IMG/VR virus record: IMGVR_UViG_3300048919_000175
Span: 1-64,000 of that record
DNA length: 64,000 nucleotides
Source: a virus
Reading direction: 5' to 3' (one strand)
Part shown: piece after piece, positions 57,246 through 61,460 of the stretch
Position numbering within the stretch: the first letter of the stretch is position 1
How the letters are laid out: each line of letters starts with the position of its first letter
Notes under the pieces: model-generated
What the model was told of the DNA's origin: nothing
The model's database searches: none
The model's input: only the letters and a program-made list of their open reading frames with translations
Translations under genes and position numbers: made by a program

Positions 57246-57463
57246 GTGGGCGTAAGTGGCGTTTGCGCAGTTCTCAGCGCTACCAAACATGGACCGGCTC
57301 GTGGGTCGTGACCGCCTACCATACCGGCGCGGTCGTGTTCCCTTGGGCGCTGGAGCTCAGCTGGAAGAACGAGAAGATTACCGGCTTCCGCACGCTTAAG
57401 GCTGCTCAGACCGAAGGCGCACGGCTGCTGGAAGAAAAGGAATGGGAAGGCGCTGGTCGTTAA
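57242..57463 (+). CDS. Small basic hypothetical protein
   Basis: This is 73 residues, beta-rich then helical (TWTGSWVVTAYHTGAVVFPW; FRTLKAAQTEGARLLEEKEW). It starts in an ATGA overlap. Function unknown. Confidence 0.55.
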   Translation: MSGRKWRLRSSQRYQTWTGSWVVTAYHTGAVVFPWALELSWKNEKITGFRTLKAAQTEGARLLEEKEWEGAGR

Positions 57464-60009: not shown

Positions 60010-61118
60010 TGATTATCTCCCATGGCCCGTGGGCCTTTTGGTATGGTTTTGTGGCGAGTTCACATTGGACAGCTTGTATTTTGTGAGGCCGCTGGCAAAT
60101 TATTACAATATTAATAACCTAGTAGCAAGGCGGAAGACCATGGGCTAGTTGTAAGTCATTGCATTGATAATGGGCAAAGGTTGGGTTTGTAAGGAAAGTA
60201 AACCAAGGTGCATGGATGGCTGTTTTGCGACCTTGGCCCATTGGCCCCAACAAAAACAAGGAGTTGCGGAGCGAAATGTAGATCACAAAGCATTACCGTT
60301 TATATACTTGCTTTGTTATGAGGCTGTAAAATTTTTTTAGCCATTAGGAATTAATTATTATAAAAAGTAGTAGTTAAAATAGTAGTATAGGACAAACCAA
60401 GGTCGTGAGCGGTAATGGTTTGTACTTGCCGCACGCCCGGCATTTCCGAATTCTACTGTCGCGGCTGGCCAATATACGATTTTCCAGACCCGCTTAGAGA
60501 ACTGCCTGTTTTGGGAATTTGGTTTAACCTTTCGTCGCTGAGGCCGGTAGGCTGGCCAATACTTGGGCGGCACCCGCACCTCTCCCTCTCATTCTCGGCA
60601 TTTAGACGACCGTCCTTTTGTACATACTGACTAAAACATGTACTTAGTACACTTTTGCCCTGCACCATGGGCCTAGCGCCCTGCACCTTGCCAGCCTAGA
60701 CATGCGCACACTGCCACAGAGACAGTCAAGGAGCGCAATGGGCCATGGCCCTAGTACCATGCACCCGCCAGCGTGCTAACGCGCTGTACGGCCTGCTCCG
60801 TGGCAAACAAACATTCAAGGAACGCTATGTAGTTCCATAATGCATGTTATGCAACAACAGCAAAAGCTAATATAACCCCTGCCGCTGGCCCTCGGCACCC
60901 TAGACATGCTTAACAGATCGTTAACGCATACAATTTAATTAAAATGCCACCAAATCGATCTACTCCTAGCGACGATCTAGTGCCCCGCTGCGTCGCGTCT
61001 CCGTGTCTTTTAAATTCCACCAGAATTCTTTTCAACGAAAGGTTGTACGTTTTAAAACCATGCCGGTTGGGAATTGGCCATGGACGATTTGCAGAAAACA
61101 GTTTTCCAATTTCCATGG
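60010..61118 (+). other. 1.1-kb largely non-coding region
   Basis: Only short, poor reading frames occur. It holds a half operator-like CTTGTATTTT (60073), AT-rich stretches (60094-60120, 60310-60395), a repeated GGCTGGCCAATA (60472, 60551), a repeated CCTAGACATGC (60695, 60899), several CCATGG words and a tandem TTAAC pair 11 bp apart (60910, 60921). Promoters for the leftward genes must lie near its left end. It may contain an origin. Confidence 0.5.
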
Positions 61119-61119
61119 T

Positions 61120-61157
61120 AAAAACACCTTGTATTTTAGCCAGTCCTCCCTTATACC
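61120..61157 (+). promoter_or_regulatory. Operator-like site, copy 4, with promoter-like -10
   Basis: AAAAACACCTTGTATTTTA (61120-61138) contains TTGTAT, followed 16 bases later by TTATAC. This gives the most promoter-like of the five sites. It would transcribe the tRNA-like element. Confidence 0.6.
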
Positions 61158-61287
61158 TACCCCATGCGCCATGGGCGATCGGAGAAGGCACCGGGCCGAC
61201 AGCCCGTGCGATGGTATCCTTTCGTTTGTCAAACTTGGCGCTAACTCGATGGCCCGCCGAATAAAGCGATAGCCATCACATGACGAA

Positions 61288-61373
61288 GTGCGATATGCGA
61301 AGGTCGGCGGTTCGAGCCCGCCCATGCCCGGAAGGCCGTGTAATCTCAGCTGGTAGAGGGTCACATACCGCAC
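61288..61373 (+). ncRNA. Circularly permuted tRNA-like RNA
   Basis: The order is end helix 5' strand (61288-61300), AGGTC, T arm GGCGG-TTCGAGC-CCGCC (61306-61322), then acceptor strands CATGCCC (61323-61329) and GGCCGTG (61334-61340) closed by the tetraloop GGAA. After TAA comes D arm TCTC-AGCTGGTA-GAGG (61344-61359), G, and end helix 3' strand (61361-61373). The end helix has 11 of 13 pairs, with two A.C mismatches; the acceptor has 6 of 7. Tertiary-contact bases of tRNA are present: GG in the D loop, TTC and A in the T loop, G15-C48 and T8-A14 equivalents. No anticodon loop and no CCA are encoded. Function unknown. Confidence 0.65.
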
Positions 61374-61399
61374 GTGCCGTCTGCAGCGGCTAGTCTCTC

Positions 61400-61434
61400 A
61401 AGGCCCATGGCAACCGGAGCCATGGGCCTTTTGC
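61400..61434 (+). terminator. Terminator after the tRNA-like RNA
   Basis: AAGGCCCATGG pairs perfectly with CCATGGGCCTT (61400-61410, 61420-61430), then TTG. It lies 27 bases after the tRNA-like fold and before the next gene. Confidence 0.85.
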
Positions 61435-61460
61435 ATTTACAGAACGATCAGGAGCAAACA

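What the first reader, a model, noticed from the sequence alone, without database searches (positions are those of the whole stretch)
61288..61373. Circularly permuted tRNA-like RNA with a GNRA-capped acceptor stem
All parts of a tRNA core occur, but in the order T arm, acceptor 3' strand, acceptor 5' strand, D arm. The acceptor strands (6 of 7 pairs) are joined by GGAA, a GNRA tetraloop, so no free CCA end exists. The two outer ends pair with each other (11 of 13 pairs) exactly where the anticodon arm would be, leaving no anticodon loop. D-loop GG, T-loop TTC and A, and Levitt-type G-C and T-A contacts are present. It lies between a promoter-like operator site and an 11-bp terminator, so it looks like an independent RNA gene. 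Permuted tRNA genes are known in red algae and archaea; I know of none like this in phages. It could be a tRNA decoy for anticodon nucleases or for translation factors (speculation).
Basis: partly seen in the sequence, partly recalled or inferred. Interest (0 to 1): 0.92.

Follow-up and report, generated by a model that had tools for sequence, protein, structure and literature searches.

The report
Phage-borne Y RNA, a tRNA mimic
The permuted tRNA-shaped RNA in this phage is real, but it has the layout of a known class, bacterial Y RNAs (tRNA mimics that normally work with Ro60-like proteins), and is unusual mainly because this phage carries no Ro-like gene.

Summary
At 61303-61359 (+) a T arm, an acceptor-like stem closed by GGAA and a D arm occur in permuted order, held on a long basal stem (61270-61392). 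The descriptor occurs once in the window and never in 150 shuffles. A covariance model built from 34 other sequences finds it at 53.8 bits. The novelty claim does not hold: this is the architecture of bacterial Y RNAs (YrlA, Rfam RF02553), in which the tRNA-like head lies on a stem that binds Rsr/Ro60. Y RNAs are already reported from bacteria and from mycobacteriophages. The same RNA is common in viral and bacterial contigs: 58 of 97 loci with a candidate also carry a Ro-like gene, usually 0-600 nt away, against 13 of 214 other loci. In Qipengyuania it lies in an rsr-Y RNA-rtcB-rtcA operon. The window copy is an odd member. No Ro-like gene was found in the 75.9-kb record, its Ro-site sequence is not recognisable, its YrlA score (23.9 bits) is far below Rfam's cut-off (69), and seven related phage records lack it. 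It has no anticodon loop, so it cannot be a cleavable decoy for anticodon nucleases. Surveyed in passing: many phage Y RNAs keep a full anticodon arm.

The parts
61270..61392 (+). Proposed Y-RNA-like RNA, whole folded unit (basal stem plus tRNA-like head)
   Evidence: both ends pair
61270..61274 (+). Basal stem, terminal helix 5' strand (TAGCC), pairs with 61388-61392 (GGCTA)
   Evidence: outer duplex reached by 15 of 2000 shuffles
61388..61392 (+). Basal stem, terminal helix 3' strand
61282..61285 (+). Basal stem helix 2, 5' strand (GACG), followed by AA; pairs with 61378-61381
   Evidence: GACGAA resembles YrlA CGAA but the YrlA AUGC / AAACUUG internal loop is missing (alignment)
61378..61381 (+). 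Basal stem helix 2, 3' strand (CGTC)
61288..61297 (+). Basal stem helix 3, 5' strand (GTGCG-A-TATG), in the place of the tRNA anticodon stem; pairs with 61364-61373
61364..61373 (+). Basal stem helix 3, 3' strand (CATA-C-CGCAC)
61301..61305 (+). Variable-loop equivalent AGGTC (C48 of the Levitt pair is 61305)
61306..61322 (+). T arm: GGCGG-TTCGAGC-CCGCC
61323..61340 (+). Acceptor-like stem CATGCCC-GGAA-GGCCGTG, closed by a GNRA tetraloop, 6 of 7 pairs
61344..61359 (+). D arm: TCTC-AGCTGGTA-GAGG, with G18G19
61400..61430 (+). Terminator-like hairpin (12 pairs, loop of 7) followed by TTTTGCATTT
   Evidence: one such site is expected by chance, so suggestive only

Best explanation
Window 61270-61392 encodes an RNA of the bacterial Y RNA type (YrlA-like). 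A basal stem made by pairing of its two ends carries a tRNA-like head whose T, acceptor and D arms mimic a tRNA; the GGAA cap means it cannot be aminoacylated. Most likely mechanism, inferred: during infection the head engages proteins that recognise tRNA elbows or structured RNA (PNPase; TruB and Dus modification enzymes are known for YrlA), while the stem is held by a Ro60/Rsr protein. As the phage appears to have no Ro gene, that partner would be the host's, and the RNA would redirect or occupy host RNA-decay or RNA-repair machinery. Shown here: sequence, architecture, relatives, and linkage of the relatives to Ro-like genes. Inferred: transcription, protein binding, biological effect.
For: Rfam YrlA is the best of all families at the site, full length 1-114, 23.9 bits, E = 0.025 over 4227 families. 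Core model R1, trained without the window: 53.8 bits; R1 scores for RNAs in Ro-bearing loci run from 34 to 78 bits. Unbiased pairing test: 47 of 127 pattern matches have 6-7 of 7 acceptor pairs against about 4 expected on re-pairing. 58 of 97 loci with a permuted candidate carry a Ro-like gene, mostly within 600 nt and on the same strand, against 13 of 214 without a candidate. TROVE hits in 15 of 26 bacterial genomes and 17 of 36 viral records with the RNA; the Ro-like family phrog_850 in 27 of 35 RNA-bearing viral records, one of them weak. Qipengyuania mesophila L304: Ro60-vWA protein, two such RNAs, RtcB, RlaP, RtcA in a row, the RNA repair operon described in PMC7790460. Published YrlA description matches part by part (PMC8394870).
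Against: No TROVE, Rsr or phrog_850 homologue in the 75,899-base record. RF02553 score far below its gathering score of 69, and below Y RNAs in Ro-bearing loci (33-76 bits). The YrlA model also gives 25.8 bits to adjacent ordinary tRNA genes in T4, and R1 gives up to about 59 bits in loci that carry tRNA genes, so scores alone do not prove a Y RNA. The conserved Ro-site sequence is not recognisable. None of seven related phage records has it (weak hits in an eighth were not examined). Head has a C-C mismatch and an extra linker base. No promoter recognised. No expression data.
Confidence: 0.8

Rival explanations
1. Ro-independent tRNA mimic: the basal stem is only a scaffold, and the tRNA-like head alone occupies a host factor such as PNPase, a tRNA nuclease, a modification enzyme or a processing enzyme.
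For: No Ro-like gene in the phage; Ro-site sequence not recognisable; head and tRNA tertiary contacts well kept. PMC7790460 suggests that YrlA could competitively inhibit an anticodon nuclease.
Against: Most relatives surveyed sit beside a Ro-like gene; host Rsr could serve; there is no anticodon loop to attract anticodon nucleases.
Confidence: 0.3
2. Decaying, non-functional remnant of a Y RNA picked up from a host or another phage.
For: Absent from seven related phage records; C-C mismatch, extra linker base, divergent Ro site; lowest YrlA score of the set.
Against: About 18 basal pairs and the tRNA tertiary contacts are intact; head passes ARAGORN once de-permuted; it sits in front of a hairpin with no overlapping convincing gene.
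Confidence: 0.18
3. Leftover of two adjacent tRNA genes fused by deletion, or part of a tRNA-directed attachment site.
For: Junctions of adjacent tRNA genes look permuted and score on the same models.
Against: No tRNA is called anywhere in the window; the two acceptor strands pair with each other across 4 nt and the outer ends pair over several helices, which a chance fusion would not give.
Confidence: 0.04
4. Acceptor piece of a circularly permuted (alphaproteobacterial) tmRNA, or a permuted tRNA gene matured to a working tRNA.
For: Same order of acceptor strands as permuted tmRNA; the nearest named phages by capsid protein infect Synechococcus and Agrobacterium, and the latter is an alphaproteobacterium.
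Against: tmRNA_permuted gives no match at E up to 10; no CCA, only 4 nt between the acceptor strands, no anticodon loop, no tag reading frame.
Confidence: 0.02

Closest known systems
YrlA, bacterial Y RNA (Rfam RF02553; Salmonella structure 6CU1)
   Same: Basal stem from paired ends; T arm, capped acceptor-like stem and D arm in the same order; tRNA tertiary contacts.
   Different: Basal stem differs in sequence, Ro-site internal loop not recognisable; 23.9 bits against a cut-off of 69; no rsr or rtcBA nearby.
Y RNAs of phages (mycobacteriophages, Chen et al. 2014 cited in PMC12282133; IMG/VR loci)
   Same: Phage genome, same head, tetraloop-capped acceptor.
   Different: Most of those surveyed lie beside a TROVE or phrog_850 gene, and many keep an anticodon arm; this one has neither.
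rsr-yrl-rtcBA RNA repair operon (Salmonella; here Qipengyuania L304)
   Same: Same RNA type.
   Different: Window has only the RNA; no Rsr homologue in the record, and no RtcB, RlaP or RtcA seen (not searched exhaustively).
Permuted tRNA genes of red algae and archaea; permuted tmRNA (RF04321)
   Same: Order of tRNA halves.
   Different: Those mature into RNAs with CCA ends and function in translation; this RNA has a closed acceptor stem and no anticodon loop.

Membership tests
Bacterial Y RNA (YrlA class) | tRNA-like head with T, acceptor and D arms in permuted order | tested here: met
Bacterial Y RNA (YrlA class) | Long basal stem made from the 5' and 3' ends | tested here: met
   61270-61297 with 61364-61392; outer duplex reached by 15 of 2000 shuffles
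Bacterial Y RNA (YrlA class) | Ro60/Rsr binding site in the basal stem | tested here: inconclusive
   Internal loops present and CGAA kept, but the YrlA AUGC / AAACUUG loop and the TAC[AT]TC motif common in the surveyed RNAs are absent; binding itself not testable
Bacterial Y RNA (YrlA class) | rsr/Ro-like gene in the same genome | tested here: not met
   None in the 75.9-kb record; a host gene could supply it, and the host is unknown
Bacterial Y RNA (YrlA class) | RNA made and bound by Rsr and/or PNPase | not testable with these tools
   needs experiment
Rfam RF02553 (YrlA), formal membership | Score at or above the gathering score of 69 bits | tested here: not met
   23.9 bits; Y RNAs in Ro-bearing loci also score as low as 33
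Permuted tmRNA (RF04321) | Match to family model | tested here: not met
   no match at E up to 10
Functional permuted tRNA | Anticodon loop and a route to a free CCA end | tested here: not met
   no hairpin at the anticodon position; 4-nt closed acceptor

The most novel reading that the evidence does not exclude
Phages use permuted tRNA mimics as dedicated decoys or adaptors against host tRNA surveillance and tRNA-cutting defences; some (as here) have shed Ro-binding and act through the tRNA-like head alone, while others keep a complete anticodon arm as bait.
Probability: 0.15. Interest if true: 0.75.

Novelty: new variant of a known kind. Interest (0 to 1): 0.42.

Why it matters
It adds a phage Y-RNA-like RNA without a Ro partner in its own genome to a class whose function in phages is unknown, and so offers a test of whether the tRNA-like head has a Ro-independent role. 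The survey made on the way suggests that permuted tRNA mimics are common in phages and usually travel with Ro-like genes (TROVE or phrog_850), which tools such as ARAGORN and Rfam at default thresholds largely miss.

Tried and rejected
Split (circularly permuted) group I intron around a tRNA, my first idea from the IMG/VR relatives: flanks pair as a stem and carry Ro-site-like motifs instead, and Rfam shows no group I match in the window. Second tRNA-like element at 57305-57370 (12.6 bits): lies inside a 73-codon reading frame, taken as chance. T4 rnaC and rnaD as relatives: no such match there; the YrlA hits in that stretch are junctions of ordinary tRNA genes. MAFFT alignment of full-length RNAs does not align the basal stem of the window reliably, so no full-length model was built. 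Primary Y RNA papers (Chen 2014; Wang 2018; Sim and Wolin reviews) are not held; they are used only as cited in held papers.

Full report
Observation. The window is part of a 75,899-base virus record whose nearest named relatives by major capsid protein are Synechococcus phages (57% identity) and the Agrobacterium phages 7-7-1, Milano and OLIVR4 (50-51%). At 61303-61359 on the + strand the tRNA parts occur in the order T arm, acceptor 3' strand, GGAA, acceptor 5' strand, D arm, with the tRNA tertiary contacts in place. A descriptor for T arm + acceptor + D arm occurs once in the window and never in 150 shuffles. De-permuted with a generic anticodon arm, the head is called as a tRNA by ARAGORN. 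Thermodynamic folding alone is not significant.

Identity. At a lax threshold Rfam's best match is YrlA, the bacterial Y RNA, over its full length but at only 23.9 bits. That alone is weak: junctions of ordinary tandem tRNA genes reach 25.8 bits. Two pattern scans of IMG/VR and one of GTDB genomes gave many permuted candidates after ARAGORN tRNAs were removed. In 127 fixed-pattern matches chosen without regard to pairing, 47 had 6-7 of 7 acceptor pairs against about 4 expected on re-pairing. The covariation count is strong, but those sequences had been selected for pairing, so I rely. A model from 34 cores, window excluded, finds the window at 53.8 bits; loci that carry tRNA genes can reach similar scores, but the window has no tRNA gene and its flanks are not tRNA halves.

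Link to Ro. 58 of 97 loci with a candidate hold a Ro-like gene, usually 0-600 nt away on the same strand, against 13 of 214 other loci. TROVE hits occur in 15 of 26 bacterial genomes and 17 of 36 viral records. Qipengyuania mesophila L304 has a Ro60-vWA protein, two such RNAs, RtcB, RlaP and RtcA in a row. This is the RNA repair operon described for Salmonella (PMC7790460), and the RNA matches the published description of YrlA (PMC8394870). Phage Y RNAs and Ro-like proteins have been noted before (PMC12282133, PMC7824862, PMC7765460).

How the window copy differs. No TROVE, Rsr or phrog_850 homologue was found in the record; a related record is of similar size and circularly shifted, so the record is probably near complete. 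The basal stem keeps CGAA but lacks the YrlA internal loop and the TAC[AT]TC motif common in the surveyed RNAs. It has no anticodon arm. Two close relatives (G063, G064), four named relatives and one further record (G067) lack the RNA, and the weak hits in another (G068) were not examined. It is therefore an accessory, probably acquired, element.

Mechanism. Shown: architecture, relatives, linkage. Inferred: that it is transcribed, and that it works as a Y RNA through host Rsr and PNPase, or through the tRNA-like head alone. The confidence of 0.8 is for the identity as a Y-RNA-type tRNA mimic; the choice between host-Ro-dependent and Ro-independent action is close to open. A cleavable decoy for anticodon nucleases is unlikely because the loop is missing. 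Transcription is supported only by a hairpin at 61400-61430, of a kind expected once by chance, and no promoter was recognised.

Verdict. A real RNA element with the layout of a known class, with an unusual orphan state. Interest is moderate.

Noticed in passing
118 distinct permuted candidates in IMG/VR and GTDB loci, e.g. L130:2594-2648, L185:5733-5787, L264:5495-5547, L179:3041-3092: 42 carry a hairpin at the exact anticodon-arm position (5-nt variable loop), 37 with U33 and 35 with U33 plus a purine at 37, against 2-14 hairpins at other offsets from 1 to 8. Diverse anticodons; these look like complete circularly permuted tRNAs opened between positions 26 and 27. I found no paper describing this, but the main Y RNA papers were not readable.
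   Followed up: partly
L062, L152, L157, L161, L181, L186, L189, L194, L199, L150 and similar phage loci: A second class with CAGCAA in the 5' strand of the basal stem lies in records without TROVE hits, but most of them carry a phrog_850 protein; the one tested matches DUF7788/DUF2828. It may be a Ro-like partner family.
   Followed up: partly
window 60821-60856: Intergenic stretch that is 91% and 96% identical (35 and 27 aligned bases) in the two related phages G063 and G064; no other match to either is listed within 60-62 kb of the window.
   Followed up: no
window 60100-61440: Noncoding stretch with several CCATGG-containing inverted repeats, one pairing 61168-61185 with 61394-61411 across the RNA; possible operator or origin region.
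   Followed up: no
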